A DNA stretch of 51,667 nt from Bdellovibrio bacteriovorus (GCF_001592755.1 NZ_LUKF01000005.1:1-51667); one strand, 5' to 3'; shown: positions 2,568-51,487, counted from the first letter of the stretch. A program made the numbers and translations. The notes: generated by a model not told the origin, from the letters alone.

Positions 2568-2576
2568 GAGTTCATT

Positions 2577-3965: not shown

Positions 3966-5335
3966 TGCCTTGGTATCGTAAAGTAATTAAGAAATTAGCG
4001 TCGATGGAGTTAGCAGTTTTAATAATTGCCTCCATCGCCGTGATAATTGCTATCGGCACTGTCGTTGAAGCTAAGTACGATGCGTGGACTGCGAAGAATT
4101 TAGTCTATGCTTCCATTTGGATGTACGTTGCAATGGGAGCGCTAGTGACGAGTCTGATTGCCGTCATTGTGGATCGCTGGCCCTGGAAGCCCCGTCACGC
4201 TTCTTTTATTTTCGCGCATGTTGGAATTATCATTCTTATATACGGTTCGCTTTTAACTCAAGTTTTTGGTGTCGATGGAACTGTTCGCCTTTCAAAGACG
4301 GAAGGCCCGGTTAAAGAAGTGACTGTGCAAGACACGGACATTGTGATCTACCGCTCCCCGGATGGATCTGATTACGAAAAGATTTATACCGAAGAGGTGA
4401 ACTATTTAAAATATCCAGTAACGACAGACAAGCCCGTTTTAATCAAAAGCCGTGATCTTAATTTCGAAATATTAGAGTCTATTCCCTATTCTGTGCCGAA
4501 GCTTCAGGTCGAAGCTTCTCCGCAACCTCAAAGTGGTGCTGCGGTTCGATTTCAGTTGGCAAATCCCAATGTCAGTCAAGTGGACTGGTTAGTTCAAAGA
4601 AATGTTTTTGAAAAAGTAGAAGCCCAAGTGGGACCAGTCTTAATTACTTTAGGAGGACTCTGGGATCGCAATCCTTCCATCAATGAAATTCGCTTCAACA
4701 TCAATGAAAAAGGCTCCTTGACGTATGCACTTTATGGAAGAGATGAAACAAAACCTTTTAAACAAGGAGTTGCTAAAGAAGGTGATCTAGTTGAAACCGG
4801 ATGGATGGGTTTACAACTTCGTATTCTTCGCTATTTACCTAAAGCTGTTCAAAAATATGATGTGACTCGATTGGATCATCCGGTCCCTGGAAGCTCCCCT
4901 TCACTTCGCGTTCGTTACAACGGACAAGAAAGCTATTTATTCTTAAATGACTACGTCAAAGTGTTCACTGAAAATCGCGTGTATTTGGTTTCCTATCAGA
5001 ATCGTCGACTGCCATTGGGGTTTGAAATTTCCCTCGATGAATTTAGAAAAACTGATTATCCGGGCACGATGCGCGCGATGGCTTATCAAAGTGCTGTTAA
5101 TTATGATGGTGGAAATAAGGCGCTTATTTCTATGAATGAGCCTTTGAAGTATAAAAAGTTTTATATCTATCAGGCGAGTTTTGAGGAAGGGCCTAATGGG
5201 ATTGTGAAGGCTTCTGTTCTCTCAGTGAACCATGATCCGGGTCGCGTCTGGAAGTATTTTGGCTCTGCAATAATGTGTCTAGGAATAGTCCTTTTATTTT
5301 ACTTCCGTAAACGAAAGAATGCTCAACCATCGTAG
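3965..5335 (+). CDS. resB: ResB-like cytochrome c biogenesis protein
   Basis: ResB (Ccs1) works with ResC/CcsA in system II cytochrome c maturation, delivering heme to apocytochromes outside the membrane. The protein has three hydrophobic segments in the first 105 residues (one begins after MELA, one spans about 46-70, one contains FIFAHVGIIILIYG with a conserved-type His). A large extracytoplasmic domain follows, then a last helix (about 428-447) before a basic tail. The start ATG overlaps the nrfA stop (TAATG), so it is translationally coupled and probably matures NrfH/NrfA. No ccsA-like partner is next to it in this window; the partner must be elsewhere. Confidence 0.85.
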   Translation: MPWYRKVIKKLASMELAVLIIASIAVIIAIGTVVEAKYDAWTAKNLVYASIWMYVAMGALVTSLIAVIVDRWPWKPRHASFIFAHVGIIILIYGSLLTQVFGVDGTVRLSKTEGPVKEVTVQDTDIVIYRSPDGSDYEKIYTEEVNYLKYPVTTDKPVLIKSRDLNFEILESIPYSVPKLQVEASPQPQSGAAVRFQLANPNVSQVDWLVQRNVFEKVEAQVGPVLITLGGLWDRNPSINEIRFNINEKGSLTYALYGRDETKPFKQGVAKEGDLVETGWMGLQLRILRYLPKAVQKYDVTRLDHPVPGSSPSLRVRYNGQESYLFLNDYVKVFTENRVYLVSYQNRRLPLGFEISLDEFRKTDYPGTMRAMAYQSAVNYDGGNKALISMNEPLKYKKFYIYQASFEEGPNGIVKASVLSVNHDPGRVWKYFGSAIMCLGIVLLFYFRKRKNAQPS

Positions 5336-30260: not shown

Positions 30261-31466
30261 ATGAAAAAGAGGCATTTTATCTCCAACTATCTCAATTTAG
30301 GCATCCTGGCAATTTCCGGTTTTGCTGCAAACTTAATTTGCGACCACTACTTTGGAAGTGAGATTGTCGGAGTCCTGAATACGTCGACATCCTTGTATAT
30401 TATCCTAACTCAATGCGCCGCTTGGGGGCAACAAGCCTACCTGCAATCCCAACTACCACTGTGCCAAACCGACTCTGAGATAAAGGAAAAGCTCACCCTT
30501 TCACTCTTTTCAAGCCTTTCAATGTCGATTCTTTTCGCTGCTGTCGCGGTACTTTTAACTCTTGCCTTCAACAAAACCGAATACACCCTTCTAGCACTCA
30601 GCACTTTGGCAATGGGTCCGGCAAAAACGCTGACATTTTCACAATTGGGCTTAGGCAGATATCACCGATTCGCGATGTGCAGTTCCGCCCGACCGGCTTT
30701 CTTTCTGATCTCCATAGCAATCCTAGGTGTTCTGGGACAGGCGAGCTTCTTGGGAGCTGCATTTCTCGCAGCGGAGCTGCTGACTTTGCTTGTAGCAACC
30801 CTTATGACCTCCCAACACATCAGCCGGTCAATTCCTTCAAAACAGAACCTGCTTGACAACCTTCGTCATAACTCTGCCAATTTCATCAGCATCATGACAA
30901 TGGAACTGAACACGCGTCTGGATATTATCGTGATTTCATTTTTGGGCTCCAAAGAGCAAGTCGCAATCTATTCAGTTGCCCTGATCTTCTTTGAGGGCTT
31001 CTACCAGGCTCTGGTGGTCATCAGAAATATCATCTCCAAAACTCTAACCAAATTACACTTTTCATCTTCAAACGAACTTAAGCTCTTCGCAAAACAGACC
31101 GCCAAAAAGGTATATCTTTTTGCGATGGCTATGGGAATCAGTGCATTCGTCACCATTCCTTGGCTGATTAAAATATATAAGAATCAGGATCTGTATTTAG
31201 AAAGTATCGCTCTGGCCTACACCGTAATTGCGGTACAAACCGCATTAGCTGGCCTGCTTGTCTTTGATAATTTTCTGGGCGTTATCAACAAGCCACAACT
31301 GTATCTAAAACAAAAGTCTTTTATCCTGCTGTTTAACTTGATAGCTCAACCGGTGTTTTTCTTATCGATGGGCTTGATGGGGTCGGCAATTGCGACTTCT
31401 TTAAGTTACTTGTGTTCGGCAGCTCTGAACTATTTAGCCATTAGCACATCCCGAGCGGCCGCCTGA
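30261..31466 (+). CDS. Second Wzx-like flippase (MOP superfamily)
   Basis: The 401-residue protein has about twelve hydrophobic segments with N-terminal NYLNLGILAISGFAANLI and a central RLDIIVISFLGSKEQVAIYSVA, the usual Wzx/polysaccharide-transporter helix-7 region. It probably flips a lipid-linked oligosaccharide. The ATG has no good Shine-Dalgarno, so translation could be weak or start on a near-leaderless message. It is a single-gene plus-strand unit between two minus-strand blocks; the stop is 4 nt from the convergent amidotransferase gene. Confidence 0.8.
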   Translation: MKKRHFISNYLNLGILAISGFAANLICDHYFGSEIVGVLNTSTSLYIILTQCAAWGQQAYLQSQLPLCQTDSEIKEKLTLSLFSSLSMSILFAAVAVLLTLAFNKTEYTLLALSTLAMGPAKTLTFSQLGLGRYHRFAMCSSARPAFFLISIAILGVLGQASFLGAAFLAAELLTLLVATLMTSQHISRSIPSKQNLLDNLRHNSANFISIMTMELNTRLDIIVISFLGSKEQVAIYSVALIFFEGFYQALVVIRNIISKTLTKLHFSSSNELKLFAKQTAKKVYLFAMAMGISAFVTIPWLIKIYKNQDLYLESIALAYTVIAVQTALAGLLVFDNFLGVINKPQLYLKQKSFILLFNLIAQPVFFLSMGLMGSAIATSLSYLCSAALNYLAISTSRAAA

Positions 31467-35827: not shown

Positions 35828-36424
35828 TTAATTCTGGGATGAACCGCGAAATTTTTCCGTCGTAGCAGAGCCCGCTGAACTGATGCCTTCGCGTATTAAA
35901 ACTTTTTTAACAGTCTTAAAGAGAATCTTCATATCCAAAACAAATGATCTGTTATCGACATACCAAACGTCCAACTTGAACTTATCTTCCCAACTTAGGC
36001 TGTTTCGACCATTTACCTGCGCCCAACCAGTAATACCGGGGCGAACCTCATGTCGGCGAGCCTGGAACTCATTATACAACGGAAGATATTCTGCATGAAA
36101 AGGTCGCGGACCAACGAAGCTGATATCACCCACGAGAAGATTATAAAAACTGGGCAGCTCGTCCAGACTACTAGCACGCAGAAACTTTCCAAAGGAAGTG
36201 AGTCGCTGTTCATCAGGCAACAATTGCCCGTGAGCATCGACCTGATTTGTCATAGAACGAAACTTCCATAGATAAAAGACTTTCCCACCCAGCCCTCCTC
36301 GAGCCTGCTTAAATAACACGGGCGGTCCTAGTTTGATACGAACTAAAAGTGCAGTTACGAAGAGTACAGGCAGCCATAACGGGGAGAACACAAACAGCAG
36401 GATCAAATCAAAACATCGCTTCAT
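35828..36424 (-). CDS. Monotopic phosphoglycosyltransferase (PglC/WcaJ-type initiating sugar transferase)
   Basis: The 198-residue protein has one re-entrant N-terminal hydrophobic segment (about 6-28), LWKFRSMT, the catalytic Asp-Glu dyad D88-E89 in SSLDELPSF, GDISFVGPRP and RPGITGWAQVNGR. The short length is like PglC, which moves phospho-diNAcBac from UDP to undecaprenyl phosphate to begin a lipid-linked glycan. The 4-aminosugar enzymes at 15-19 kb make such a role plausible here. Its ATG overlaps the stop of the aldo/keto reductase-like gene (ATGA), so the two are coupled. The last 20 residues are a polar tail. Confidence 0.92.
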   Translation of the reverse strand: MKRCFDLILLFVFSPLWLPVLFVTALLVRIKLGPPVLFKQARGGLGGKVFYLWKFRSMTNQVDAHGQLLPDEQRLTSFGKFLRASSLDELPSFYNLLVGDISFVGPRPFHAEYLPLYNEFQARRHEVRPGITGWAQVNGRNSLSWEDKFKLDVWYVDNRSFVLDMKILFKTVKKVLIREGISSAGSATTEKFRGSSQN

Positions 36425-38194: not shown

Positions 38195-39400
38195 ATGTCT
38201 AAAATCGCCAACATACTACTACACGTTCTAATATTCGTCACCATCATCCACTGGAGAGCTTTTGACGCAATGATTGTACTATCGTTGTTAATTTTGATCG
38301 CAGGTCGGCCATTTTCGATAGACCAAATTGCTGGCGCACTTAAGCAAACTAAACTTTTCCATTTCTTGATAGTAGCGTGGTTACTCGTAGTTTTTATTGG
38401 GAATTATTTGTATGGAACGCCCGCAGAAGTATTAAACTTCAGATGGATTTTTGGCAGCTATATTATCTACGCCGTGAGTAGACTGAACCGAGTCAAAGAT
38501 GACTCATTTTTATCCACCACATCATTGGTCGTAACTGCAGGTGCTATTTTAGCATTCGTATATGCTTATCAATCAACCACCTCGTGGCCGTCGCAAGACA
38601 ATAGGTTCTCTGGCTTTTACCACAACCCTAACGTGTATGGCATGACTTTATCTCTTCCCTGCGTATATCTTATCGGTTGGGTGCTAACGGCCATCTTCTT
38701 TAAAAAGAAGATCTCCACCTGGAACATACTGGCGCTTGGAACTTTAACAGCCACAGTGTTTTTCACATATTCCCGCAGCTCGTGGATGGGGCTAGTATCT
38801 GCAACTTTAATGGCCGTATTTGTAATGCGCAAAAATAGAACGGTTATTCTGGGGTTCATATTTTCAATTTTAGTTGGCATAATAATGTTTCTTACAAACT
38901 TCATGAGTCTGAAGGAACGCTTACTCTACACAGGAGACTTCACGGGAGCAACTTCCACGACCGTTCGCATAGAGATCTGGAAAGCTAACATTGCCATGTT
39001 TCTCGACCAGCCCTGGTTTGGAGTTGGGTATTGGCATAACACCGAACTTCTTTCAAAATACACTACTCCAGACAAGGTTCCAGGTGACGATATATTCGCC
39101 CATGCCCATAACCAGTACCTTCAGGTACTTTCTGGAACTGGAATTATCGGGTTTACTATATACTTGCTTTTAATAGCGGTGATCGGATTTTACTTTTGGG
39201 GCAAGTATCAATCTTCAAAAGATGTCCTAGTGAAGCGAATTGCACTTTGCGCCTTTCTCTCGTTTGTCTCTTATCTTTTTACTTCATTGTCAGACTCGCC
39301 ACTTGATAGCAGAGAGACGCGAGACTTTTTTATGATTATTCTTGCAGGGAGCTTGGGAATTATTCACAACCGCACTCAGCCAGCAACTATTAACAGTTAA
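38195..39400 (+). CDS. O-antigen ligase/polymerase family protein (WaaL/Wzy_C type)
   Basis: The 401-residue membrane protein has about eleven hydrophobic segments. Key signatures of the O-antigen ligase family are GFYHNPNVYGM, FTYSRSSWMGL, RIEIWKANIAMFLDQPWFGVG, and the large-loop HAHNQYLQVLSGTGIIG with its conserved His. It could join a lipid-linked glycan to lipid A-core or polymerise it. It is a single-gene unit on the plus strand, and its TAA overlaps the stop of the convergent gene at 39397. Being next to the arabinofuranose-donor genes, it may act on that glycan. Confidence 0.85.
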   Translation: MSKIANILLHVLIFVTIIHWRAFDAMIVLSLLILIAGRPFSIDQIAGALKQTKLFHFLIVAWLLVVFIGNYLYGTPAEVLNFRWIFGSYIIYAVSRLNRVKDDSFLSTTSLVVTAGAILAFVYAYQSTTSWPSQDNRFSGFYHNPNVYGMTLSLPCVYLIGWVLTAIFFKKKISTWNILALGTLTATVFFTYSRSSWMGLVSATLMAVFVMRKNRTVILGFIFSILVGIIMFLTNFMSLKERLLYTGDFTGATSTTVRIEIWKANIAMFLDQPWFGVGYWHNTELLSKYTTPDKVPGDDIFAHAHNQYLQVLSGTGIIGFTIYLLLIAVIGFYFWGKYQSSKDVLVKRIALCAFLSFVSYLFTSLSDSPLDSRETRDFFMIILAGSLGIIHNRTQPATINS

Positions 39401-40914
39401 TAAATTTTTACTTCGACTGGTAAGTTGCCCAGCTCACCTTTGAAAGAAATCAAATCATTTTTCAGTTTGGATATTTTTTCCTCTCTTGTAAATACGGAAA
39501 CAACATCACCACCTAAAACGACATTCTTCTCCAGCAAAATAAACTCTCCTACTTTTTTCCACTCGGCAGACGGCTGAAGCCAGCTTTCATATATAAAAAG
39601 AATATCAACGCCTTTTTCATTAGCAATATCTGAAATCCAATCAAAATCGCGAGAGCTCAATCGCTTTCGCAAAGCATCTTGCGAGGCGAGGCCCCAAAGA
39701 TCCAACACTTCATACTTGTATCTTAAACCTGGAAGTCCAATGTCATTGAGTCCGACAGGTTCTTTCAAATACTTATCCATGAATTCAGCTGTAACTCCTT
39801 GCTGAAAACGTATGTTCCGAGACGCTTGATGTAATTTACTCAAGCTAAAAATATATGGCTCGCATAACCAACATAGGAATGCAAACGACAAGATGTATCG
39901 CCATCTGCTCAAGTTTGAGACAGATAGCAGACTAATGAAAAATAGAATTACGTATACCAATATGTAAACTTCATACCGAAAGAACCAACCAAATTTACCT
40001 ACGAGCAAATGCAGTACGGATGGTATAACCAAAACAGTTACACTTGCCCAAGACAATCGGTGTGTCTTACGTGCCAACAAAACATTGATAATAGTAAGAA
40101 GCAAAATGCCTAAGCCTTGTCGCGAGGTAGCGTTTGCATGAAAAGTTGACAGAACTGTTAACAAAAAACTTGTATCACTCGCCGTCTTTGCCATGACGGA
40201 TGACGGAAGAAATCCAAGCCCAATCCACTTAAGAAAAAAGGAGAATGCAACGGCAGGGAATAAAGGAAAAAGAGTCACAATACAGATCTTTTTTGGATCC
40301 CTTTTGGTGAGATAAAAAGCAACTGCAGCTGCCCAAAATACAAGCATTTCATAACGTATCATGATCGCGAAGGTTAACAAACCAACCAACTGTCCAAAGC
40401 TTTCCTGTCTTCTCTCCACTATCTCCGCAAACTGTTTAAAAATTAATGCTACGAGTAGAAGTTGAAGAACGTGTTCTAATCCGTTAAGTGCCAAGCCAAA
40501 ACCATTTATAAAAAATAGTAATAAAATAGATATTGTATAAGAAACTGCAGGCCTGATTTGAAAATTTACTAGTAGATCAAAAACCACAGCAACAAAGCAG
40601 AGAATCAAAACTGAGTTGAAAACAAAAGGAACATATTCAAAAAAATAAGTGTGCGCGAACGGGGCAAGTAGGAACGGCCAAACGATACTTGAACTTGGAG
40701 CTGAATTTTCTGACAAGTTAAACCCGTAGTGTCCCGATGCAATATTTTTAGCCAACTTCAAATGGATATAAGGATCATCAAGCGTATATGTAAAAGCTTG
40801 GAATCCTTCCGTAACCCAAGCCAAGAAAATAACTTGATACATAACTGCCGTTAGTAAGACGAAAGCTAGCCATTGCATTCTTGTTTTGCGGGACAATTCC
40901 TGAGTTTTAAACAT
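39397..40914 (-). CDS. GT-C-like membrane glycosyltransferase, candidate arabinofuranosyltransferase
   Basis: After a first helix the protein has YTLDDPYIHLKLAKNIASG. The DD...A in the first loop is characteristic of many GT-C enzymes. About ten more hydrophobic segments and a soluble C-terminal domain (from about 385) follow. I chose the ATG at 40914 (505 aa) because AGAAGGA lies just upstream; an earlier in-frame start adds 8 residues. It diverges from the three-gene polyprenyl-phospho-arabinose operon at 41037, so using that donor is a reasonable but unproven idea. Confidence 0.6.
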   Translation of the reverse strand: MFKTQELSRKTRMQWLAFVLLTAVMYQVIFLAWVTEGFQAFTYTLDDPYIHLKLAKNIASGHYGFNLSENSAPSSSIVWPFLLAPFAHTYFFEYVPFVFNSVLILCFVAVVFDLLVNFQIRPAVSYTISILLLFFINGFGLALNGLEHVLQLLLVALIFKQFAEIVERRQESFGQLVGLLTFAIMIRYEMLVFWAAAVAFYLTKRDPKKICIVTLFPLFPAVAFSFFLKWIGLGFLPSSVMAKTASDTSFLLTVLSTFHANATSRQGLGILLLTIINVLLARKTHRLSWASVTVLVIPSVLHLLVGKFGWFFRYEVYILVYVILFFISLLSVSNLSRWRYILSFAFLCWLCEPYIFSLSKLHQASRNIRFQQGVTAEFMDKYLKEPVGLNDIGLPGLRYKYEVLDLWGLASQDALRKRLSSRDFDWISDIANEKGVDILFIYESWLQPSAEWKKVGEFILLEKNVVLGGDVVSVFTREEKISKLKNDLISFKGELGNLPVEVKIY

Positions 40915-41036
40915 AGTTCCTTCTTGGCGTTTGAACAAAAGACGAACTTAGACAAGCCACTAGAAAAACTCAAGATTCGCAACTGACGCGCTGCCATTTC
41001 TTTGCTACTTTTTTTACATCCGATTAAATTGCCTTC

Positions 41037-42452
41037 ATGAGACATTATGTAGTCTGCGATTTGGATGATTGCCTTATAAAAACAGATTTGCTTTATGAAC
41101 AATGGCTTGTTCTTCTAAAATCCAAGCCGTTAGTTTTCTTACAAAGTCCTTTTTGGCTTGTAAAAGGTCGCTCTTATTTTAAATTCAAATTGTCTCAGCA
41201 TGCACCCATTTCCCCTAACCTTCTACCTTACAGGGAAGAAGTAGTTCAGTTTTTAAAAACGTCGAAAACTGATAAAAACAATCAATTAGTTCTTGCTTCA
41301 GCAAGTCCAGAGACTTGGGTGAAAGATATATCTCTCCACACTGGACTGTTTGAATCTGCGCTAGGAAGCTCTCAAGAATCAAATCTAAAGGGAGCTGCCA
41401 AGTATAAAGCCATCAGATCATCCATTGGAGAAAATACATTCACCTATATTGGCGACCACACCGCTGACTTGGAAATCTGGAAGCACTCATCGAAGGTAGT
41501 GGCAGTAAATCCTTCTGTGAGTTTACGCTCCAAAATTGCTTTACTTGCAAAACCTACCGACATTATTACTGACAAAAAAAGATCGACTTGGAATCTGACG
41601 GTCAAACAAATTCGCCCTCATCAATGGATTAAGAACGTCCTTGTCTTTTTGCCCGCATTTGCAGGTCATAAACTGGTTAGTGCGGATAATATTCAGAACG
41701 GCTTACTTGCCTTTGCAGGATTTAGCTTTGCTGCTTCGTTCGTTTACGTACTTAATGACCTCTTAGATCTTAAAGCGGATCGAAATCATCATACCAAAAA
41801 ACGTCGTCCTTTCGCTTCTGGAGACCTGCCAATAAAATGGGGACTTCTGTTACTTCCATCACTTTTGGCCGGTTGTGGAACAATGGCAGCGTTACTACCA
41901 ACTGATTTTGCCATATGGATATCGGTGTATTTGATTTTGAACTTAGCTTATTCTCTCTATCTTAAGCAGAGTGTCGTTGTTGATATTATTATCTTATCCA
42001 TGATGTATACTCTTCGCATATTCGCTGGATCAGCAGCGACGTCTGTGCCAATTTCGGAATGGTTATTAAGCTTCTCTACTTTATTCTTTTTTAGCTTGGC
42101 TTGCGTGAAAAGATACACTGAGATCATTAGAAGTAAAAACAAGATAACTCTCGACGGACGAGGCTATCGACAAGTTGACTATTCAATGGTCCAATCCCTT
42201 GGGGTTGGTTCAGGATTGATATCAATCCTAATCATTCTTTTATATCTTCAGAGCAACGACGTGAGGGCCTTATATAACAACCCCCAGAACTTATGGTTTG
42301 CAACACCTGTACTGCTATTCTGGATCTCTCGAGTTTGGATTCTCACCAATCGCGATGAAATTCATGATGATCCGGTCGTATTTGCCGTAAAAGATAAAAT
42401 TAGCTGGATCTGTCTTGGACTTCTAGGCTTAATCTTTGGGATAGCGACATAA
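41037..42452 (+). CDS. HAD phosphatase fused to UbiA-type polyprenyl-phosphate phosphoribosyltransferase
   Basis: Residues 1 to about 180 are a HAD hydrolase with motif I D8-L-D10, LASASPETW, and GDHTADLEIW. From about 190 a UbiA-family membrane prenyltransferase follows: IRPHQWIKNVLVFLP and the Mg-binding N240DLLDLKADRNH, then KKRRPFASG. The UbiA half matches Rv3806c-like enzymes that join 5-phosphoribose-diphosphate to polyprenyl phosphate. The HAD half could remove the 5-phosphate, giving polyprenyl-phospho-ribose (inference). Its TAA shares a base with the DprE1 start. About eight helices are seen in the UbiA half. Confidence 0.88.
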   Translation: MRHYVVCDLDDCLIKTDLLYEQWLVLLKSKPLVFLQSPFWLVKGRSYFKFKLSQHAPISPNLLPYREEVVQFLKTSKTDKNNQLVLASASPETWVKDISLHTGLFESALGSSQESNLKGAAKYKAIRSSIGENTFTYIGDHTADLEIWKHSSKVVAVNPSVSLRSKIALLAKPTDIITDKKRSTWNLTVKQIRPHQWIKNVLVFLPAFAGHKLVSADNIQNGLLAFAGFSFAASFVYVLNDLLDLKADRNHHTKKRRPFASGDLPIKWGLLLLPSLLAGCGTMAALLPTDFAIWISVYLILNLAYSLYLKQSVVVDIIILSMMYTLRIFAGSAATSVPISEWLLSFSTLFFFSLACVKRYTEIIRSKNKITLDGRGYRQVDYSMVQSLGVGSGLISILIILLYLQSNDVRALYNNPQNLWFATPVLLFWISRVWILTNRDEIHDDPVVFAVKDKISWICLGLLGLIFGIAT

Positions 42453-43756
42453 TGGAATACCCAAGTTGGGGATTTTATCCCGTCGTAAAAAATCAAGATA
42501 CTTACATATTACCAAACAGAATAACTTCAATCCCGAGTTTGACCACCTCTCTCCTACCTCGTGGACTGGGTCGTTCCTATGGAGACTCCTGTCTCAATGA
42601 AAACGGTACACTGATAATAACCAGTCAGCTGAATCATTTTATATCATTTGATGAGAGTTCCGGTGTTCTTTGTTGTGAAAGTGGAATTACTTTCGATGAG
42701 ATTCTTAAATTTGCTATTCCTCGTGGTTGGTTTCTTCCAGTTACGCCCGGGACTAAATTTGTGACCGTGGGCGGTGCTATTGCTAATGATGTTCATGGTA
42801 AAAATCATCATTGTGCAGGGAACTTTGGACACCACGTCCTTTCGTTTGAACTATTACGCTCGAATGGCGAAAGACTCCGCTGCTCTCGAATTGACAATAG
42901 TGACTTCTTTTTTGCCACGATCGGTGGCCTTGGACTAACAGGATTAATTACTTGGGCGGAATTTAAACTGACGAAAATCCAATCGTCATTTATTTCTCAA
43001 GAGCAGATACAGTTTGATTCATTAGCTGATTTTTTGACCTTGTCTGAACAATCCGAAAAGGATTTTGAGTTCACGGTCTCATGGGTTGACTGTGTTAACA
43101 CCGCTAAAGACGTACGGGGAATTTTCATTCGCGGCAACTATTGTAAGCCTTCGGAATCTGCAGTACTAAAGGTCCACAATACTGACACATTTAAAACTGT
43201 TCCGCTGTTTTTTCCAGAATGGATTTTAAATAGCTTTTCCATACGCGCATTTAACGAACTTTATTATAGGAAAAACCTGTCGCATCATAAAAGCAACATC
43301 GTTCACTATGAACCTTTCTTTTATCCACTAGATTCTATCTACCATTGGAATAAAATTTATGGCAAAAGAGGCTTTCTGCAGTACCAGTTCGTCATTCCGT
43401 ATAAAAACGATCAAGGCGCAGCATTGTCAGAAATATTTTCCCTGCTTCAACGCAGCCAAATGGGCTCTTTTTTGGCAGTTTTAAAAACCTTCGGTTCAAT
43501 CCCTTCAGAGGGAATGCTGTCCTTCCCGAAAGAAGGTATAACTTTAGCCTTAGATTTTCCAAACCATGGAGAGTCTTTGTATGAAGTTTTGGAACAATGC
43601 GATCAGATTGTTCGGTCTGTTAACGGTGCTGTTTACCCTGCTAAAGATGCCCGAATGCGCAAAGAAAGTTTTGCAGAGTTCTATCCCCGCCTCAATGAAT
43701 TTGAAAAGTATATCGATCCGAATTTTTCTTCTAGTCTCTGGAGACGTGTAAAATGA
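42452..43756 (+). CDS. dprE1: Decaprenylphosphoryl-beta-D-ribose 2'-oxidase (DprE1-like FAD enzyme)
   Basis: An FAD-linked oxidase that turns polyprenyl-phospho-ribose into the 2-keto form, the first half of ribose-to-arabinose epimerisation. Signatures shared with mycobacterial DprE1 are GLGRSYGD (Y43), VTPGTKFVTVGGAIANDVHGKNHH, GGLGLTG, WNKIYGKRGFLQYQFVIP and the catalytic-Lys segment YPAKDAR. At 434 aa it is slightly shorter than the 461-aa mycobacterial protein. The Cys that benzothiazinones attack (Cys387 in M. tuberculosis) aligns with Ala366 here, in ITLALDFP. It is translationally coupled on both sides (1-nt and 4-nt overlaps). Confidence 0.92.
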   Translation: MEYPSWGFYPVVKNQDTYILPNRITSIPSLTTSLLPRGLGRSYGDSCLNENGTLIITSQLNHFISFDESSGVLCCESGITFDEILKFAIPRGWFLPVTPGTKFVTVGGAIANDVHGKNHHCAGNFGHHVLSFELLRSNGERLRCSRIDNSDFFFATIGGLGLTGLITWAEFKLTKIQSSFISQEQIQFDSLADFLTLSEQSEKDFEFTVSWVDCVNTAKDVRGIFIRGNYCKPSESAVLKVHNTDTFKTVPLFFPEWILNSFSIRAFNELYYRKNLSHHKSNIVHYEPFFYPLDSIYHWNKIYGKRGFLQYQFVIPYKNDQGAALSEIFSLLQRSQMGSFLAVLKTFGSIPSEGMLSFPKEGITLALDFPNHGESLYEVLEQCDQIVRSVNGAVYPAKDARMRKESFAEFYPRLNEFEKYIDPNFSSSLWRRVK

Positions 43757-44490
43757 AAAAAATCTTAGTCATTGGTGCAACTTCAGCGATAGCCCAAGAA
43801 GTAGCTAAATTGTATGCAGCGAATAGCGAAGAGCTCATTCTCTGGGGACGCAACAGCGAGATGCTACATATCATTTCCCAAGATCTTCTCGTTCGAGGTG
43901 GTAAAAAGATATCTTCTATAAGTCATGACTTAAACGATCTTGCTATACACGAATCAAAAATTAATGAGATTTGGAACACTCACTCCAAAATCGATATAGT
44001 GTTATTAGCACATGGAGTCCTTGGAAATCCTAGAAAAGCTGAGGTTAATCAAGCTGAGATGCTTCACCTTTTAAATAGCAACTTTGTTTCTCATGTTTCT
44101 CTACTTACATTCATCTCCCAAAAAATGGTTCAACAAGGTTTTGGAACAATCGCGGTGATCTCATCTGTAGCAGGTGATAGAGGTAAACAGTCAAACTATG
44201 TGTATGGATCCGCAAAGGCCGGAATGACGGCATACACGGATGGTCTAAGAAATCGACTATTCCCTACTGGTGTCCATGTCCTGAATCTAAAGTTAGGCCC
44301 CGTGGATACACCGATGACCAAAGATCACAAAAAAACTGCGTTATTTGGAAAAGCGCCTTCGGTTGCAAAAGGTATTGTTTCCGCCATCGAAAAAAAGAAA
44401 AACACTGTCTATCTACCTATGATTTGGCGCTACATTATGATCATCATCAACAGTATTCCAGAAGCTGTATTCAAGCGTCTCAAGATTTAG
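43753..44490 (+). CDS. dprE2: Decaprenylphosphoryl-2-keto-ribose reductase (DprE2-like SDR)
   Basis: A short-chain dehydrogenase of 245 residues with GATSAIAQEVA (8-18), the LLAHGVLG motif, the catalytic Y151-x-x-x-K155 in YGSAKAG and an upstream Ser in ISSVAGD. It would reduce the 2-keto intermediate to polyprenyl-phospho-arabinose with NAD(P)H. The C-terminal hydrophobic segment (about 220-240) is like that of mycobacterial DprE2 and would keep it near the membrane. The ATG overlaps the DprE1 stop (ATGA). The TAG overlaps the stop of the convergent membrane protein gene. Confidence 0.9.
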   Translation: MKKILVIGATSAIAQEVAKLYAANSEELILWGRNSEMLHIISQDLLVRGGKKISSISHDLNDLAIHESKINEIWNTHSKIDIVLLAHGVLGNPRKAEVNQAEMLHLLNSNFVSHVSLLTFISQKMVQQGFGTIAVISSVAGDRGKQSNYVYGSAKAGMTAYTDGLRNRLFPTGVHVLNLKLGPVDTPMTKDHKKTALFGKAPSVAKGIVSAIEKKKNTVYLPMIWRYIMIIINSIPEAVFKRLKI

Positions 44491-46028
44491 CGTACTTTAC
44501 ATCTGTAGATTGTGAAATATTCCATAGCAGAAACCCGCTCGTAATGTACTCTAAATGTCGTTTTAAAGTCTTCCGAGAACAAAGGAGTATCTTGGTAAAA
44601 ACTCAAGAGACTCCACGGTTCTCCTTTTTTGGGGAAAATTAGATAAGGAACTTTACACGACTTCATGGCAGTCATTGTCGAATCAGGAAAATCTAAATGA
44701 GAGGCCTTCATGTCCATTAACGATGCGCCATCAAAAAATAGTCCTCTGCCTCTCTCCACTAAGTAAGCTTTGTAAAAAGTAGACTCGTAATTATTATTGT
44801 CGGAAAATCCTAATTCCGCGCGGCCAGGTGGCAAAACATTCAAGATAGATTTCAAGTCTCTAAACTCTTTAATTCGAACAGGGGTCTCTGAAAGCAGTTC
44901 AACCACTCTCTTCTGGCGATTCACAGCATTCAGTGCGACAGTTAACAAAAAAGCCGCAAAAATATAATTTACGCGAAGACGCTCCTCAGAACTCTTACGA
45001 TAATACTCCTCATTTGAGAGCCATAATAACACTGGGACCAGTGGCAAAAAATGATGAGGACCGGCGCCCGGTTTACTTGCCGCGATAGCTATTAGCAATG
45101 AAACGCCACAGAAGACGAAGAAAGTAATTCTATAGCGTTTTGAAAAGCCTATAAGTACTAATAGCAAAAGGAAACTGGTAATGAAGGAAACATTTTTTAC
45201 TGTGTCTGAAAATGCAAGACCATGTTTAGACGCCATTTTTAGCCAGGTTAGGTACAAATCTTCTCTGACTTGCGGAAAAAAGAATGGTGCCACCGCAACA
45301 CAAACAAAGGCTACGATGCCCGTAGCTATCTTGAATAACGATCGCTCCCGATTTCTTTCGCAATACAAAGATACAATAGGTACAAAATACAACAAGGCGT
45401 GAAGCTTACTATTGACGGATAGCCCAGCAAGAACCCCTAGCCCAACATACATTTTCCAGGTTTCAACCACACTTCTTTTAGTAACTAACAACAGTGACCA
45501 GAATACATATGTCATCAGAAACGAGTCAGGCCTATTCCAATAGCTGAAATTGTAAAATCCCAATATCACTATGGAAATCAAAGCGACCGAATAAAACTGA
45601 TCTTTTTTTGTTAGCAGAGAATCTTTCGCCAGAAGGACTATACCTAAAAACAAAAGCACTAAGTTTACAAAACCCGAAAGTTTTGAAGCAAAAATAATTG
45701 GCAATCCGCTGGATTGAAAAAAAGCCGTAACTAAATAAGGCCAAGGGCCATACAGTAGTGAGTATCTGCTCTCTGAGTCGAGCTCCGTATAAATTGGATA
45801 TCCCTGCCTCCATAATGCAGCAACGGAAGCGATATTTGCCTCTGCATGATCGAAGAACAAAGGAGTCGCGAGATACGCCAGTGCACTTCCAGCTAGCCAA
45901 ACAAAAGCCGCAATGAGTATTGTCTTGGAGGCAGCAGACATGAACTTCTGAACTTTTGTATTATTACGAATCCAATAGGAAAGAACCAATAACAGAAGAA
46001 AATTTATAAGAAGTGATGAAATCGGCAC
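44487..46028 (-). CDS. GT-C-like membrane glycosyltransferase
   Basis: The 513-residue protein has about eleven hydrophobic segments. After the second, FFDHAEANIASVAALWRQG and YSLLYGPWPYLVTAFF follow, an acidic first loop and a YGPWP motif as found in many GT39-like GT-C transferases. A soluble region of about 130 residues forms the C-terminus. The GTG start at 46028 has AAGGAG 8 nt upstream and lies 2 nt after the stop of the GT87-like gene, so the two are co-translated. It ends against dprE2. A role in moving a polyprenyl-linked sugar such as arabinofuranose is inferred only from its neighbours. Confidence 0.62.
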   Translation of the reverse strand: MPISSLLINFLLLLVLSYWIRNNTKVQKFMSAASKTILIAAFVWLAGSALAYLATPLFFDHAEANIASVAALWRQGYPIYTELDSESRYSLLYGPWPYLVTAFFQSSGLPIIFASKLSGFVNLVLLFLGIVLLAKDSLLTKKDQFYSVALISIVILGFYNFSYWNRPDSFLMTYVFWSLLLVTKRSVVETWKMYVGLGVLAGLSVNSKLHALLYFVPIVSLYCERNRERSLFKIATGIVAFVCVAVAPFFFPQVREDLYLTWLKMASKHGLAFSDTVKNVSFITSFLLLLVLIGFSKRYRITFFVFCGVSLLIAIAASKPGAGPHHFLPLVPVLLWLSNEEYYRKSSEERLRVNYIFAAFLLTVALNAVNRQKRVVELLSETPVRIKEFRDLKSILNVLPPGRAELGFSDNNNYESTFYKAYLVERGRGLFFDGASLMDMKASHLDFPDSTMTAMKSCKVPYLIFPKKGEPWSLLSFYQDTPLFSEDFKTTFRVHYERVSAMEYFTIYRCKVR

Positions 46029-46030
46029 TG

Positions 46031-47197
46031 CTACCGCTCCTTACCAGCAACTTGTTCAGTGCGATGTCGTAAAATTACAGCAAGATAAATTAATATTCCT
46101 ATATAGGCATAAATAGCGGAGTTATTCATAATGAAATCTATCCACGGATCTGATTTATCTCCGTTCAGACTTCTATGAAATATTGTAACAAGCAGTAACC
46201 ACGTTGCGGTCCGACGTCCAACCTTTTGTAACAAAGGAATCATGACAATGCATACAATAAGCAAGGAATAAGGTTTTAAACGTGGAAGCCAAAGCATTAA
46301 CAACAAATAACTCCAGCATAACCGAAGCATTCGATTGCTCTCATCTTTAATCACATTTTTCCATACTAAATAAGAAAGGTATGCAAGCAACAACACGAAG
46401 AAAGTCGCACCCGCCATCCAAAAATCATTTAACAACTTTTCACTAAGATTCTTAAAGAAAAGAAGAATCGTGATATTAGAGGCGTTCGATTCTATTTCAT
46501 TGATTGGGCTATGTTGATTTGAGTATTTACCAAGAATCTGACGGAAAAAACTATTAAATAGGTCGGGAGAGTAAAGAAAATTTATTAGAATTAAACTCAA
46601 TACACCTGCAGAGAAAAGAAAAAACACTTTTGCTTTTTGCTTAACCGTATCCCCTGCCAGTAATATCGCAGGGATTGCCATTACTGAAGGCACGACCTTA
46701 ACAAAGGCCGAGGGCGCAAGCCACAATACCCCTTCGAATTTTCTGACCGCAAAAGACCAAAGAAATAACGCAAAGAAAAGGGCTTCAAAAACCCCGATAT
46801 TACCAGTGTTGTAGTTGGAAAAGGCAGCATTATAGCCTAAAAACAGCCATGTAACGGTGATATACGGGTCCCATTTTAACTTTTGAATCAGTACAAAACT
46901 AATAAATAAAAGAATAGCAAAATGAAAAATTAAATATGTCTTGGGCCCACCAACGCAGAATGGCCTATAAGACTCTAAGAAAATGGCAGGATAAGTGAAA
47001 GATAACTCGAAGCCGAGGTTCGCTGTGATGTAAGGGTCCAATCCCTTATCGGATGCCTTAACGGCTTCACAGTAAATATGATGATCCCATCCTCCTTTGT
47101 TAGAGAAATAAACCTTCAAAGGCGTCTGAAGAACCGCAAAAGCGATCGCTCCAAATAAAAGATATTTTAAAAGATTACGAATCCTTGAATTGATCAT
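46031..47197 (-). CDS. GT87-like (DUF2029) polyprenyl-phosphate-sugar mannosyl/arabinosyltransferase family protein
   Basis: The 389-residue protein has about nine or ten hydrophobic segments. It has GGWDHHIYCEAVKA with the first-loop Asp, GLDPYITANLG, FTYPAIFL, YNTGNIGVFEAL and WLPRLKPYSLLI, in the order usual in GT87/PimE-like membrane mannosyltransferases. It probably moves one sugar from a polyprenyl-phosphate donor outside the membrane. I use the ATG at 47197; a TTG directly before it is possible. It is upstream of, and almost touching, the GT-C gene. Confidence 0.72.
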   Translation of the reverse strand: MINSRIRNLLKYLLFGAIAFAVLQTPLKVYFSNKGGWDHHIYCEAVKASDKGLDPYITANLGFELSFTYPAIFLESYRPFCVGGPKTYLIFHFAILLFISFVLIQKLKWDPYITVTWLFLGYNAAFSNYNTGNIGVFEALFFALFLWSFAVRKFEGVLWLAPSAFVKVVPSVMAIPAILLAGDTVKQKAKVFFLFSAGVLSLILINFLYSPDLFNSFFRQILGKYSNQHSPINEIESNASNITILLFFKNLSEKLLNDFWMAGATFFVLLLAYLSYLVWKNVIKDESNRMLRLCWSYLLLMLWLPRLKPYSLLIVCIVMIPLLQKVGRRTATWLLLVTIFHRSLNGDKSDPWIDFIMNNSAIYAYIGILIYLAVILRHRTEQVAGKER

Positions 47198-47279
47198 CAA
47201 TAGTTACTCTGATTTATAACCAACACGTATTTACTTTGGTATGCAAGGAACAACGATGCTGCTCTGCAACCAAATCTTA

Positions 47280-48281
47280 TTAAAGCGATTCACTAAGCAT
47301 CTTTATAGAGTAGTGGCACGTAAAATGAACTCCGTCGTTCCAGTACTTCGGCGAACCATCATCCTCATCCATACCTTGAAAAGAATCCACTACTTTGATT
47401 CCATCGGTTTCAAGGCTCTTTAGTGCCTTAATCCACTTTTGATGCTTTTCGAAAATGTCCGGGTATTCATTCTTCAGTCGAGTTAAAAATTCGGGATGAT
47501 ATGGTGTAATCAGTATTATAACGTCAACGTCGTGAAGCCTCAGACGTTTCATCTCATCGGAAAAAATTTTTAACGAATCCGGATTTTGTAATGGTTTCAA
47601 GACTCCATGAGCATAGTTTTGATACAACAAATCCACTTCTTTACGAAGACTCTCAGCTGATTCTTTTCCTTTAAAGTCTTCGGACTCACAATCAGTAATT
47701 CTGAGCTCGCTACCAGCTCCTTTACTAATCGTTGTTGCTTCCCTATTACCAATAAAATGCAGCGAAGCTTCTAAAGTATTGTGGTCAATGAGACTTTGAA
47801 GATACTTGATTTTTTGCTGAACACCTTCTTCGGTCGTTTTACTCAAAAAATACTTTCTGAGCGCCGGTGTGTTCTTAATTTTAGAATCCGTACTTTCTCC
47901 AATTAAATCAAAATAGTCCGCGAGCCAAATGACCTTCTTTAATTTTGCATTCTCTTCAGCAATTTTTAATAAAGTTAATTTGGTTATTAATTCAGCTCCA
48001 GAAACGGACAGGTTCAACGTCTTTAATCCGGTCTCTTTTTCTATCCATAAAGGAGGCGTAGTTTCTCCCCGAGATGACCCTAAAATAATTAGTTCAGTTT
48101 CCGGAAATGCTAGCACCCTTTGAGCAGCTTGATAGTAAGTATTTAAGGTCTTCTTTGAGGGCTCGACAGTTTCACATCGATAATAACATTGTGGATCTAG
48201 CGAGTAATTAATTGCTCCAACCAACACGAGGAGCAAAACTGAAAATAACCCAAACAAAATGATGGAATTCTTCGAAGTCAT
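47280..48281 (-). CDS. SGNH-like anchored protein, probable partner of the MBOAT (AlgJ/DltD-like role)
   Basis: One N-terminal helix (about 5-26) anchors an extracytoplasmic domain. Block I of SGNH enzymes is seen as IILGSSRGE, with SSR instead of GDS, and the terminal catalytic D-x-x-H is in YWNDGVHFT. The protein lies 8 nt after the MBOAT gene, with AGGAG 6 nt before its ATG. In alginate, cellulose and D-alanine systems an MBOAT hands an acyl group to such an SGNH-type partner, which puts it on the polymer. The polymer here is unknown. The family was not recognised by name. Confidence 0.68.
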   Translation of the reverse strand: MTSKNSIILFGLFSVLLLVLVGAINYSLDPQCYYRCETVEPSKKTLNTYYQAAQRVLAFPETELIILGSSRGETTPPLWIEKETGLKTLNLSVSGAELITKLTLLKIAEENAKLKKVIWLADYFDLIGESTDSKIKNTPALRKYFLSKTTEEGVQQKIKYLQSLIDHNTLEASLHFIGNREATTISKGAGSELRITDCESEDFKGKESAESLRKEVDLLYQNYAHGVLKPLQNPDSLKIFSDEMKRLRLHDVDVIILITPYHPEFLTRLKNEYPDIFEKHQKWIKALKSLETDGIKVVDSFQGMDEDDGSPKYWNDGVHFTCHYSIKMLSESL

Positions 48282-48289
48282 GTTTGCTC

Positions 48290-49702
48290 CTAAAACTGGA
48301 AGTATAGAAATGGTGATTCCTCACCCATATATGAAAGGCAGATCACGAATAGAAGAGCTAAAAGCAGGGCGTTTCGAAAGCTAGGCTTGAACTGAATCTC
48401 CCAAGTATTGCGCATAAAAAAAGCGGCACCGGACGCTACAACTAAGGCAGCAATAAACCGGTCCTTATGTCTTGCAGGAATAAGAATAATATCCCAAGAA
48501 ATATCTGCGTTTAAAAAAAACACCTTCTGCAACCACAGATTCGCTTCGTGAAAGTTTGGCGCTCGGAAAAATACCCACGCTACGCAAACGAAAAGAAAAG
48601 TTAGAGCCCATTTTAAGGACTTGAACTTCAAAAAGTCCCAACCTCTATCTTTAAAGAAACGTTCAACGGCAAGAACACCGCCATGTAAGACACCCCAAAC
48701 CACGTATGTCCAATTTGCTCCATGCCAAAGACCGCCAATCGCCATGGTTAAGAGAAGATTTCTATATGTTTTAAGTTTGCCCTCTCGATTTCCCCCTAAG
48801 GAGATGTAAAGATAATCACGCAACCACGACGATAGAGAAATATGCCATCGCTGCCAGAACTCAGTAATAGATTTTGACTTATACGGAGACTGGAAGTTTG
48901 CGGGAAACTGGATATTCATCATGAGACCCAAGCCTACCGCCATATCGGAATACCCGCTAAAATCGAAATAGAGCTGCATCGTATATCCTACCATCGCAAG
49001 CCATGCTTCAGCATTTGAAGCCGAGGCCATATTGCCTACCAATGGATCGACAACAGCCGCTATTCTGTCGGCGATAAGCATCTTTTTTGATAGACCGAAA
49101 ATAAAGAAGTAACAGCCTTTCCAAAAATTATCGGCATGGAATACATATGTAGAGGAACTCTCGAGTTGGGGCACGATCTGGTTGTGGCGCACCAGCGGTC
49201 CCGAAATTTGATGAGGAAATAGGGTCACGTACCCTGCAAACTCGAGGAGATGCGCATGGGCATCTGATGTTCTTCGATAAACATCAATGACGTAAGACAT
49301 TGATTGGAAAGTATAGAACGAAATTCCAATTGGCAAAACGAGCTGTAAAGCCGGCAGGACGGAAGCTCCACCGAATGCTGTTACAGAGCTATTCAATGTA
49401 TCTGCAAAGAAATTGTAGTACTTAAAAAAACCTAAAATCGCCAAATTGGCTGACATGGATGTTATTAAAAGTATTTTTCTATGCCGCTGGGTTTGTGCGT
49501 AATAAATAGCTTTAGCGATATAAAAATCAAGAACGACCGTGAATAGCAGAAGAAATACGTACGTTGCACTCCAGTAGCAATAGAAAAACACACTGGATAA
49601 AAACAGGAACCACAACTGAATCTTCTTTTTCTTGATTATGTAATAACCCAAGAGCGTTAACGGCAAAAACAAGAATAAGAAAATATACGAATTAAAAAGC
49701 AT
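48290..49702 (-). CDS. MBOAT-family membrane O-acyltransferase (AlgI-type)
   Basis: The protein begins MLFNSYIFLFLFLPLTL, the classical N-terminus of AlgI-like MBOATs, which decides the start at 49702 although the open frame extends 33 residues further. It has about eleven hydrophobic segments. Signatures are MSYVIDVYRR, FFPHQISGPLVRH-type (here LFPHQISGPLVRH), QLYFDFSGYSDMAVGL, FWQRWHISLSSWLRDYLYI and the catalytic-His region GGLWHGANWTYVVWG. It would take acyl groups from a cytosolic donor and pass them across the membrane to the SGNH-like protein encoded 8 nt downstream. Confidence 0.93.
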   Translation of the reverse strand: MLFNSYIFLFLFLPLTLLGYYIIKKKKIQLWFLFLSSVFFYCYWSATYVFLLLFTVVLDFYIAKAIYYAQTQRHRKILLITSMSANLAILGFFKYYNFFADTLNSSVTAFGGASVLPALQLVLPIGISFYTFQSMSYVIDVYRRTSDAHAHLLEFAGYVTLFPHQISGPLVRHNQIVPQLESSSTYVFHADNFWKGCYFFIFGLSKKMLIADRIAAVVDPLVGNMASASNAEAWLAMVGYTMQLYFDFSGYSDMAVGLGLMMNIQFPANFQSPYKSKSITEFWQRWHISLSSWLRDYLYISLGGNREGKLKTYRNLLLTMAIGGLWHGANWTYVVWGVLHGGVLAVERFFKDRGWDFLKFKSLKWALTFLFVCVAWVFFRAPNFHEANLWLQKVFFLNADISWDIILIPARHKDRFIAALVVASGAAFFMRNTWEIQFKPSFRNALLLALLFVICLSYMGEESPFLYFQF

Positions 49703-49819
49703 TAAGCATGAATAATAGAAAAGCGGCATCCTTGCAAAGCAACAAACGAGTTTGACATTTGCCGCGAGGCTCCAATAACAAATTGCCTGAAATAGCGGCA
49801 ACTTTTGAGATCATAGGTC

Positions 49820-51487
49820 TCAATCGAATAGTAAATTCCCGTAAATCTCTTCTGGAAACACAGTGTCTATGACACGCTTATCAACGAGTTCTTCTGAGTT
49901 ACGTTTACAGACATCTTTAAGATAGCCGTAAAATTCATGGTAGACAGGAATTGATTCAGAAAGAACGCCCGGAAGACAATAGATAGGCTTGTCATGAATT
50001 TCTCTTGCAATAGATTCCGCGAGATCTAAATTTTTAGTATTAAATGCGCTTACGAAAAGAGGAACTCTTCCGTAAGTTAAACGCTGAGAATCGTTCAAAG
50101 ATGAAAAACGGAAACCATCGCTCTTTTCACCCTTTGAAGTGAAGAAATCGTCACTAAAAACATGTTTTTTATAAAATGAAATTGTCATCGCCGGCTTATG
50201 ATCGCCAAAAATCAAAAATAGAACGGGCCGGTTATTCTTTTGGGCCAATCCATGAACTCGCGCTTGAAAACTCAAGAATTCGCTTAAAGATTCCTGCAAT
50301 TTGGCTTTGTAATCCGCTTCTCCCCCATCATTATTCACTTCTCTATAAGGCCCATGGGTATGAATAGTGATTAGAAAAGAAAAAGTCTTTTTGTTTTCTA
50401 TTAAATTGGCTTTGTATTGGTCTAGGGCATTTTTAAAAAGGATATCATCCTTTGGAACAATGGACATATCTGGCCAATTCATCTGTTCCAGGAAGATAGA
50501 TTTCTCAAAACCAAATTTAGGATGCACAACGTCTCTTCGCCAAAAAAAGGCGCGATTGTTATGCGAAGAAAAAGTAGCATAACCGTTTTCAGCGAAAACT
50601 CTTGGAAGCGCCATTGCGTGCGGTGAATAACTTTCTGCGAAATATTGAAAATCGATCCCTTTGTATCTTTGGCTCGGTAGTCCAGTTAAAACTTCAAATT
50701 CTGCCTCTGCAGTCATACCACCATAGACCGGCGAAATCATGGTTGATCGCGCGAATCCCACTTTCTCAAGATCAGCCATGGGGGTTACGAATTTTGCAGA
50801 AGTGCTTGTGTAACAAGACTCACAAAGAACGAGAAAAACATCTGGCATATCTTTGGAATTATGAACTGTTGCAACCTTTCGCTCACCTAAACGCACCTTA
50901 CCTTTTGCCGGAATTTGTCCCATAGGTAGAGTTAAAAATAGATGATTTAAAACGCCATTCTCTTTGATATTCGTGGCAAAGTTCCAGTCGACATAATGAA
51001 CCTTCGCAATGCGAAACAAATAATTGACCAAATTAACTGACGACTCAGTCGGTCTTCGCTCTTGCATACAAGAGGTAGTAACTAACAGCAAAATCGGAAG
51101 AAAAATAAACTGACGTTTCCTAATCGTGAAGCCTTTGAAAAAACACAAAAGCATTCCAATCGCCAAAAGAGGAATCAAAAAATCCGTATAGCTCTTTAAG
51201 AAAAGCGCTTGTTTCCATCCAAAAATATCAGAAGCTTCCAGGGCAGTATTCGTGTACGAAAGTTTCATTAAGTGAATTCGCAACAGCAAAGCTTCCAGCA
51301 AAAAAACAAACACGGCCGCAAAATATGGTCGAAGTACGAGCAAAAACGATGCGTAAATTAACCATGGTAAAAGTAATTTAGTGGGCAAGATATAATCAAA
51401 AACAAACCACTGAATAAAAAGACTCGACAAACTCAATAAGAGGAGTCCCCAAAGCATTTGCCCTTTATCAAATAGTTTAATGCGCAT
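49820..51487 (-). CDS. LtaS-like sulfatase-fold phosphoglycerol/phosphoethanolamine transferase
   Basis: Five or so hydrophobic segments (about 1-140) precede an extracytoplasmic alkaline-phosphatase-fold domain. It has PDVFLVLCES (metal-binding Glu), GGMTAEAEFEVLTG with T259 in the place of the LtaS nucleophile Thr300, THTHGPY and FGDHKP (metal ligands). Proteins of this kind transfer phosphoglycerol or phosphoethanolamine from phospholipid to a glycan, as LtaS or OpgB do. In a Gram-negative locus, decoration of a surface glycan or periplasmic glucan is more likely than lipoteichoic acid. AGGTGAAAA lies directly before the ATG. Confidence 0.83.
   Translation of the reverse strand: MRIKLFDKGQMLWGLLLLSLSSLFIQWFVFDYILPTKLLLPWLIYASFLLVLRPYFAAVFVFLLEALLLRIHLMKLSYTNTALEASDIFGWKQALFLKSYTDFLIPLLAIGMLLCFFKGFTIRKRQFIFLPILLLVTTSCMQERRPTESSVNLVNYLFRIAKVHYVDWNFATNIKENGVLNHLFLTLPMGQIPAKGKVRLGERKVATVHNSKDMPDVFLVLCESCYTSTSAKFVTPMADLEKVGFARSTMISPVYGGMTAEAEFEVLTGLPSQRYKGIDFQYFAESYSPHAMALPRVFAENGYATFSSHNNRAFFWRRDVVHPKFGFEKSIFLEQMNWPDMSIVPKDDILFKNALDQYKANLIENKKTFSFLITIHTHGPYREVNNDGGEADYKAKLQESLSEFLSFQARVHGLAQKNNRPVLFLIFGDHKPAMTISFYKKHVFSDDFFTSKGEKSDGFRFSSLNDSQRLTYGRVPLFVSAFNTKNLDLAESIAREIHDKPIYCLPGVLSESIPVYHEFYGYLKDVCKRNSEELVDKRVIDTVFPEEIYGNLLFD

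What the first reader, a model, noticed from the sequence alone, without database searches (positions are those of the whole stretch)
41037..44490. Complete polyprenyl-phospho-D-arabinofuranose operon in a Gram-negative predator-like genome
Three overlapping genes encode a UbiA-type phosphoribosyltransferase (with a HAD phosphatase), DprE1 and DprE2. This is the whole route to the arabinan donor DPA known best from mycobacteria. Signature motifs of all three are seen directly. Four membrane glycosyltransferase- or ligase-like genes (38195, 39397, 44487, 46031) flank the operon, so the locus may decorate a surface glycan with D-arabinofuranose. That would be notable for a predatory-type cell surface.
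Basis: partly seen in the sequence, partly recalled or inferred. Interest (0 to 1): 0.85.

Follow-up and report, generated by a model that had tools for sequence, protein, structure and literature searches.

The report
Lipid-linked D-arabinofuranose operon in Bdellovibrionales
This predator-group genome carries a complete three-gene set predicted to make the same lipid-carried sugar (D-arabinofuranose) that mycobacteria use in their cell wall; such gene sets are already known to be widespread in Gram-negative bacteria, but here it comes with unclassified membrane sugar transferases found, as clear homologues, only in the seven members of the genus that own the operon.

Summary
41037-44490 holds three overlapping same-strand genes: a HAD phosphatase fused to a Rv3806c-type UbiA phosphoribosyltransferase, a DprE1 homologue and a DprE2 homologue, with catalytic residues conserved. 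They most likely turn PRPP and polyprenyl phosphate into polyprenyl-P-D-arabinofuranose. The operon sits in a surface-polysaccharide locus of a Bdellovibrionales genome and occurs in 7 of 24 genomes of the genus, where DprE1 forms one clade. It is not exotic: one scan found at least 582 related DprE1 stretches in GTDB species genomes, and Kelly et al. (PNAS 2024, PMC11127046) describe this kind of system (PRP-PPPRS fusion, optional DprE1/E2, flippase, GT-C) as widespread. New here: the convergent neighbour 44487-46028 has an ArnT-like GT-C fold (Z 20, pLDDT 86), only a weak PMT_2 match, and single-sequence homologues in 5 of 24 congeners, all operon carriers. A second unclassified membrane family (L021:4371-5489) covers the other two carriers, so each of 7 carriers and none of 17 non-carriers has at least one. 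These are the best arabinofuranosyltransferase candidates. The flippase and acceptor glycan are unidentified and the product is unproven. Verdict: real, interpretation largely right, new member of a known kind.

The parts
41037..42452 (+). PRP-PPPRS fusion: N-terminal HAD phosphatase (DxD at D8/D10) + C-terminal UbiA-type polyprenyl-phosphate 5-phosphoribosyltransferase (N240 D241 D244 D248; R359, E362)
   Evidence: NF006088 563.6 bits; UbiA and HAD Pfam; PDB 8j8j 1e-30; motif residues conserved in 95-100% of 64 homologues
42452..43756 (+). DprE1 homologue: FAD-dependent polyprenylphosphoryl-ribose 2'-oxidase (H132, K134, Q334, Q336, K367, K418 of Mtb numbering conserved; C387 replaced by Ala)
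   Evidence: NF053785 367.7 bits; PDB 4aut 8e-78; residues
43753..44490 (+). DprE2 homologue: SDR 2'-keto reductase (S138, Y151, K155)
   Evidence: PRK07102 277.6 bits over cut-off, NF053786 192.9 bits; PDB 21gq_C; residues
44487..46028 (-). GT-C membrane glycosyltransferase with ArnT-like predicted fold; best candidate arabinofuranosyltransferase
   Evidence: AlphaFold pLDDT 86.3, pTM 0.88; ArnT Z 20.2 over 438 residues; single-sequence homologues in 5/24 genus genomes, all operon-positive
46031..47200 (-). GT87-like GT-C membrane protein; second candidate transferase
   Evidence: homologue L020:7057-8229 hits GT87 at 44.4 bits; PimE Z 12.4 with a low-confidence model; 3/24 genomes, all operon-positive
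38195..39400 (+). Wzy_C-type O-antigen polymerase/ligase; a homologue flanks the operon in all 7 operon-positive genomes
   Evidence: PF04932 94.8 bits; cluster 9
39397..40938 (-). Polytopic membrane protein of unassigned family (possible GT-C); not conserved in the genus
   Evidence: no Pfam/NCBIfam hit; only in G000 among 24 genomes
35828..36424 (-). Initiating polyprenyl-phosphate sugar-1-phosphate transferase of the surrounding polysaccharide locus
   Evidence: PF02397 198.5 bits, TIGR03025 237.8 bits

Best explanation
The operon makes polyprenyl-phospho-beta-D-arabinofuranose for extracytoplasmic decoration of a surface polysaccharide. [quoted passage not shown] (2) The fused HAD half removes the 5'-phosphate. 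(3) DprE1 oxidises and DprE2 re-reduces C2, giving the D-arabino epimer. (4) An unidentified flippase exposes the donor to the periplasm. (5) A GT-C enzyme, most likely 44487-46028 and perhaps also the GT87-like 46031-47200, transfers D-Araf to the glycan built by the surrounding Wzy_C/sugar-transferase locus. Enzyme identities for steps 1-3 are shown by homology and active-site conservation; step 5 is inferred from fold and co-occurrence; step 4 and the acceptor are not identified.
For: Profiles and PDB relatives. The PPPRS, HAD, DprE1 and DprE2 catalytic residues are conserved and match by motif the residues tested by mutation in Citrobacter ORF15 (N247/D248/D251/D255, D18; PMC11127046). Gene overlaps suggest co-translation. 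The operon is conserved as a unit in 7 of 24 genus genomes with one supported DprE1 clade (100/95), though L019 has one ORF inserted. GT-C fold of 44487-46028. Single-sequence searches (E <= 1e-6 or 1e-10) find GT-C family 11 in 5 genomes and family 46 in 3, together in 7/7 carriers and 0/17 non-carriers. The hypergeometric p of 5/5 is 0.0005 without correction for kinship. The locus lies among Wzy_C, Bac_transf, UDP-sugar dehydrogenase, GT2, Polysacc_synt_2 and DegT genes.
Against: DprE1 and DprE2 fall below the NCBIfam equivalog cut-offs (368 of 500, 193 of 250). No GtrA-type flippase was found in the genome, and the putative flippase at 30261-31466 is in no other genome of the genus. The wider GT-C family 11 has two ~30%-identity members in G361, which lacks DprE1, and its profile also touches operon-negative G015 weakly and partially (27.6 bits), so the family is not strictly arabinose-bound. 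Co-occurrence may reflect block transfer of a polysaccharide locus. No sugar analysis is available.
Confidence: 0.75

Rival explanations
1. Same donor, but the acceptor is a protein: a GT-C adds D-Araf to a pilin or other envelope protein, as TfpW does in Pseudomonas aeruginosa group IV strains.
For: TfpW adds alpha-1,5-linked D-Araf to type IV pilin (PMC11841053). Bdellovibrio use type IV pili in predation (own knowledge).
Against: No pilin gene was seen next to the operon; the flanks are polysaccharide genes with a Wzy_C gene in all 7 carriers. Wzy_C also covers protein O-ligases, so this is not decisive.
Confidence: 0.15
2. The final sugar is not arabinofuranose: the lipid-linked ribose is used as such, or another epimer is made.
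For: Citrobacter ORF12 uses Ribf or Xylf donors and a different SDR makes Xylf (PMC11127046). DprE1/E2 scores are below equivalog cut-offs.
Against: Both DprE1 and DprE2 are present with catalytic residues intact, and the paper reports DprE1/E2 homologues in Araf systems and an ORF13 homologue in Xylf systems.
Confidence: 0.07
3. The UbiA and oxidase belong to an unrelated lipid, quinone or aldonolactone pathway.
For: UbiA and FAD_binding_4 are broad superfamilies.
Against: Competing non-DPA models score about 20-37 bits against 564 and 368; the best PDB relatives are all DPA enzymes; the three genes are a conserved unit.
Confidence: 0.03

Closest known systems
Three-component pentofuranose systems (Citrobacter youngae O1/O2 ORF12-15; Kelly et al. 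2024, PMC11127046)
   Same: HAD-PRP domain N-terminal to a UbiA-type PPPRS; auxiliary epimerases; GT-C transferase; surface-polysaccharide context; ArnT is also the closest GT-C of solved structure to that system's GT136 enzyme.
   Different: Here DprE1/DprE2 replace the Xylf epimerase ORF13 (reported there for Araf systems too), no adjacent MATE flippase was recognised, and the GT-C was not shown to belong to GT136.
Mycobacterial DPA pathway (Rv3806c, Rv3807c, DprE1, DprE2, Rv3789, Emb/Aft)
   Same: Same three enzyme activities; DprE1 catalytic residues conserved.
   Different: The phosphatase is a fused HAD instead of Rv3807c; no GtrA-type flippase found in the genome; no Emb-type enzyme was seen near the operon (genome not searched for one); BTZ-binding Cys387 is Ala; the lipid is presumably undecaprenyl phosphate.
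P. aeruginosa group IV pilin arabinosylation (TfpW)
   Same: Gram-negative D-Araf route with a GT-C transferase.
   Different: That PPPRS has no PRP domain (PMC11127046); its acceptor is pilin; here the context is polysaccharide.
ArnT (PDB 5f15/5ezm)
   Same: Predicted fold of 44487-46028, Z 20.2, rmsd 6.1 over 438 residues.
   Different: About 10% identity; ArnT transfers Ara4N to lipid A; the family-11 profile matches no PDB sequence.

Membership tests
Three-component pentofuranose glycosylation system, Araf type | PPPRS (UbiA-type) with NDxxDxxxD and a PRP/HAD domain with loop I Asp | tested here: met
   NF006088 over cut-off; N240 D241 D244 D248 in 64/64 and D8 in 97% of homologues
Three-component pentofuranose glycosylation system, Araf type | DprE1/DprE2 homologues as auxiliary epimerases | tested here: met
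Three-component pentofuranose glycosylation system, Araf type | Dedicated MATE-family (or SMR/GtrA) flippase | tested here: inconclusive
   No GtrA in the genome; Wzx/MOP-like proteins at 19245 and 30261 have no relevant Pfam match and the second is not conserved; MATE family not searched genome-wide
Three-component pentofuranose glycosylation system, Araf type | GT-C fold glycosyltransferase encoded with the system | tested here: met
   Fold of 44487-46028; homologues co-occur with the operon
Three-component pentofuranose glycosylation system, Araf type | Pentofuranose on a surface glycan | not testable with these tools
   needs glycan chemistry
DprE1 (NCBIfam NF053785 equivalog) | score over the curated cut-off of 500 bits | tested here: not met
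   367.7 bits; none of the relatives with a match passes either, so it is filed as a DprE1 homologue, not as the equivalog
DprE1 (NCBIfam NF053785 equivalog) | FAD and catalytic residues H132, K134, Q334, K418 | tested here: met
DprE2 (NCBIfam NF053786 equivalog) | score over the curated cut-off of 250 bits | tested here: not met
   192.9 bits; PRK07102 SDR model is met (277.6 over 267)
CAZy GT136 | sequence similarity to Citrobacter ORF12 | not tested
   no GT136 model or ORF12 sequence was compared
GT87 (46031-47200) | Pfam GT87 score over 25 bits | tested here: inconclusive
   window protein itself has no hit; 43%-identical homologue L020:7057-8229 scores 44.4

The most novel reading that the evidence does not exclude
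44487-46028 (family 11) and the L021:4371-5489 family are two unclassified arabinofuranosyltransferase families, interchangeable partners of one DPA operon, giving some Bdellovibrio species a D-arabinofuranose-bearing surface glycan that could matter for predation, self-recognition or phage resistance.
Probability: 0.35. Interest if true: 0.6.

Novelty: new member of a known kind. Interest (0 to 1): 0.4.

Why it matters
It gives a predatory Gram-negative group a testable, strain-variable D-arabinofuranose surface sugar, and points to two unclassified membrane-transferase candidates tied to lipid-linked D-Araf. The Ala at the benzothiazinone-binding position in 79 of 84 DprE1 homologues suggests that the non-actinobacterial pathway escapes covalent DprE1 drugs, which helps to interpret their selectivity.

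Tried and rejected
Aldonolactone-oxidase and quinone-UbiA readings were rejected on profile scores. Gene 39397-40938 as the dedicated transferase was judged unlikely: it is absent from the other 23 genomes of the genus and shows no profile relation to families 11 or 46. Families 11 and 46 could not be linked by profile. A GtrA flippase was not found, and 30261-31466 as a conserved flippase failed. PDB sequence searches with families 11, 42 and 46 gave nothing. The family-11 members outside the genus were checked for a nearby DPA operon and have none. The first genome search (PF04116) used an irrelevant family and only served to place the window. No paper linking Bdellovibrio with DprE1 or arabinan surfaced, which covers only open-licence papers and showed only the top 15. 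The model of 46031-47200 is weak (pLDDT 60).

Full report
Observation. The three ORFs exist exactly where stated and overlap by 1 and 4 nt. 41037-42452 matches the HAD-UbiA model NF006088 at 563.6 bits over its whole length, and within the UbiA half the decaprenyl-phosphate phosphoribosyltransferase models at 131-160 bits; the best solved relative is the mycobacterial enzyme 8j8j. 42452-43756 matches DprE1 at 367.7 bits, against about 30 bits for sugar-lactone oxidases, with 4aut as best solved relative. 43753-44490 matches PRK07102 over its cut-off and DprE2 at 192.9 bits, with DprE2 21gq_C as best solved relative by a wide margin. DprE1 and DprE2 stay below the curated equivalog cut-offs, and so does DprE1 in all relatives with a match, so they are homologues and not model-certified equivalogs.

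Active sites. In 64 HAD-UbiA homologues the NDxxDxxxD motif (N240, D241, D244, D248) is invariant, and R359/E362 and the HAD Asp D8 are in 97-100%. These correspond, by motif, to residues mutated in Citrobacter ORF15 (PMC11127046). In DprE1 the residues at Mtb positions H132, K134, Q334, Q336, K367 and K418 are in all 84 homologues; C387, the benzothiazinone anchor (own knowledge), is Ala in 79 of 84 including the window. DprE2 keeps the SDR Ser-Tyr-Lys.

Where it is. The window is contig 5 of a 3.66 Mb genome. The DprE1 gene occurs in 7 of 24 genomes of the genus, the window's included, and in 14 of the 148 genomes searched. The seven genus DprE1 proteins form one clade (100/95, 100% of bootstrap trees), so the patchiness may be loss or transfer within the genus. 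Family and order relatives lie elsewhere in the tree.

Not rare. In the 84 clustered loci, 59 have the HAD-UbiA gene and 62 have DprE2 on the same strand within 4.5 kb (contig ends lower these counts).

Context. The surrounding genes are polysaccharide genes: Wzy_C (38195), Bac_transf (35828), UDP-sugar dehydrogenase (34396), GT2 (33421), Polysacc_synt_2 (15423), DegT (17285). A Wzy_C-type homologue flanks the operon in all seven genus loci; whether it also occurs in non-carriers was not tested.

Transferase candidates. 44487-46028, convergent with the operon and overlapping it by 4 nt, has only a weak PMT_2 hit (31 bits). Its model (pLDDT 86.3, pTM 0.88, eight sequences) matches ArnT best (Foldseek 2e-5; Z 20.2 over 438 residues), with AftA, EmbB, AftD and AftB lower; all are GT-C. 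Single-sequence searches find homologues in 5 of 24 genus genomes, all carriers, all within the 20 kb taken around the operon. 46031-47200 is in 3 of 24, all carriers, and is GT87-like through its homologue. A third family, absent from this window (L021:4371-5489), is in 3 of 24, all carriers, and supplies the two carriers that lack the first. Together each of 7 carriers and none of 17 non-carriers has one. The third family's fold was not modelled, so calling it a transferase is inference. Kinship and physical linkage are not corrected for, and only 24 genomes were available. Two remote family-11 proteins occur in G361, which has no DprE1, and a weak partial profile match in operon-negative G015, so the fold family is wider than this pathway.

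Missing pieces. No GtrA flippase was found in the genome. The MOP-like 30261-31466 is not conserved in the genus. The acceptor is unknown.

Comparison. Kelly et al. 2024 establish PRP-PPPRS, flippase and GT-C as a widespread system, state that Araf-containing glycans come with DprE1/E2 homologues, and do not name Bdellovibrio in the main text. The locus is therefore a member of a known kind; what is new is its occurrence and genus-level patchiness in this predatory group and the unclassified transferase candidates.

Verdict.

Noticed in passing
window 42452-43756 and 83 homologous loci: The benzothiazinone-anchoring Cys387 of mycobacterial DprE1 is Ala in 79 of 84 homologues from outside Actinobacteria, suggesting natural insensitivity to covalent BTZ drugs.
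   Followed up: partly
window 47280-51487: MBOAT acyltransferase with an adjacent 333-aa protein of no Pfam family, and a sulfatase-family membrane protein; close homologues lie near the DPA operon in L021 (MBOAT 79%, 333-aa protein 54%) and L024 (sulfatase 73%).
   Followed up: no
L019:8069-9331: A 421-aa ORF with no relative in the other loci is inserted between HAD-UbiA and DprE1 in one genus member, breaking the otherwise tight operon.
   Followed up: no
window 2121-5335: Cytochrome c552 (NrfA-type) nitrite reductase gene preceded by a small haem-protein-like ORF and followed by a ResB-like gene.
   Followed up: no
window 38195-51487: G+C falls from 43-46% in the left part of the window to 38-42% across the operon and its GT-C neighbours, compatible with a mobile or fast-evolving glycan locus.
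   Followed up: no
L020:3094-4641 and L020:5531-7075: One genus member carries two copies of the family-11 GT-C near its DPA operon, hinting at several transferases using one donor.
   Followed up: no
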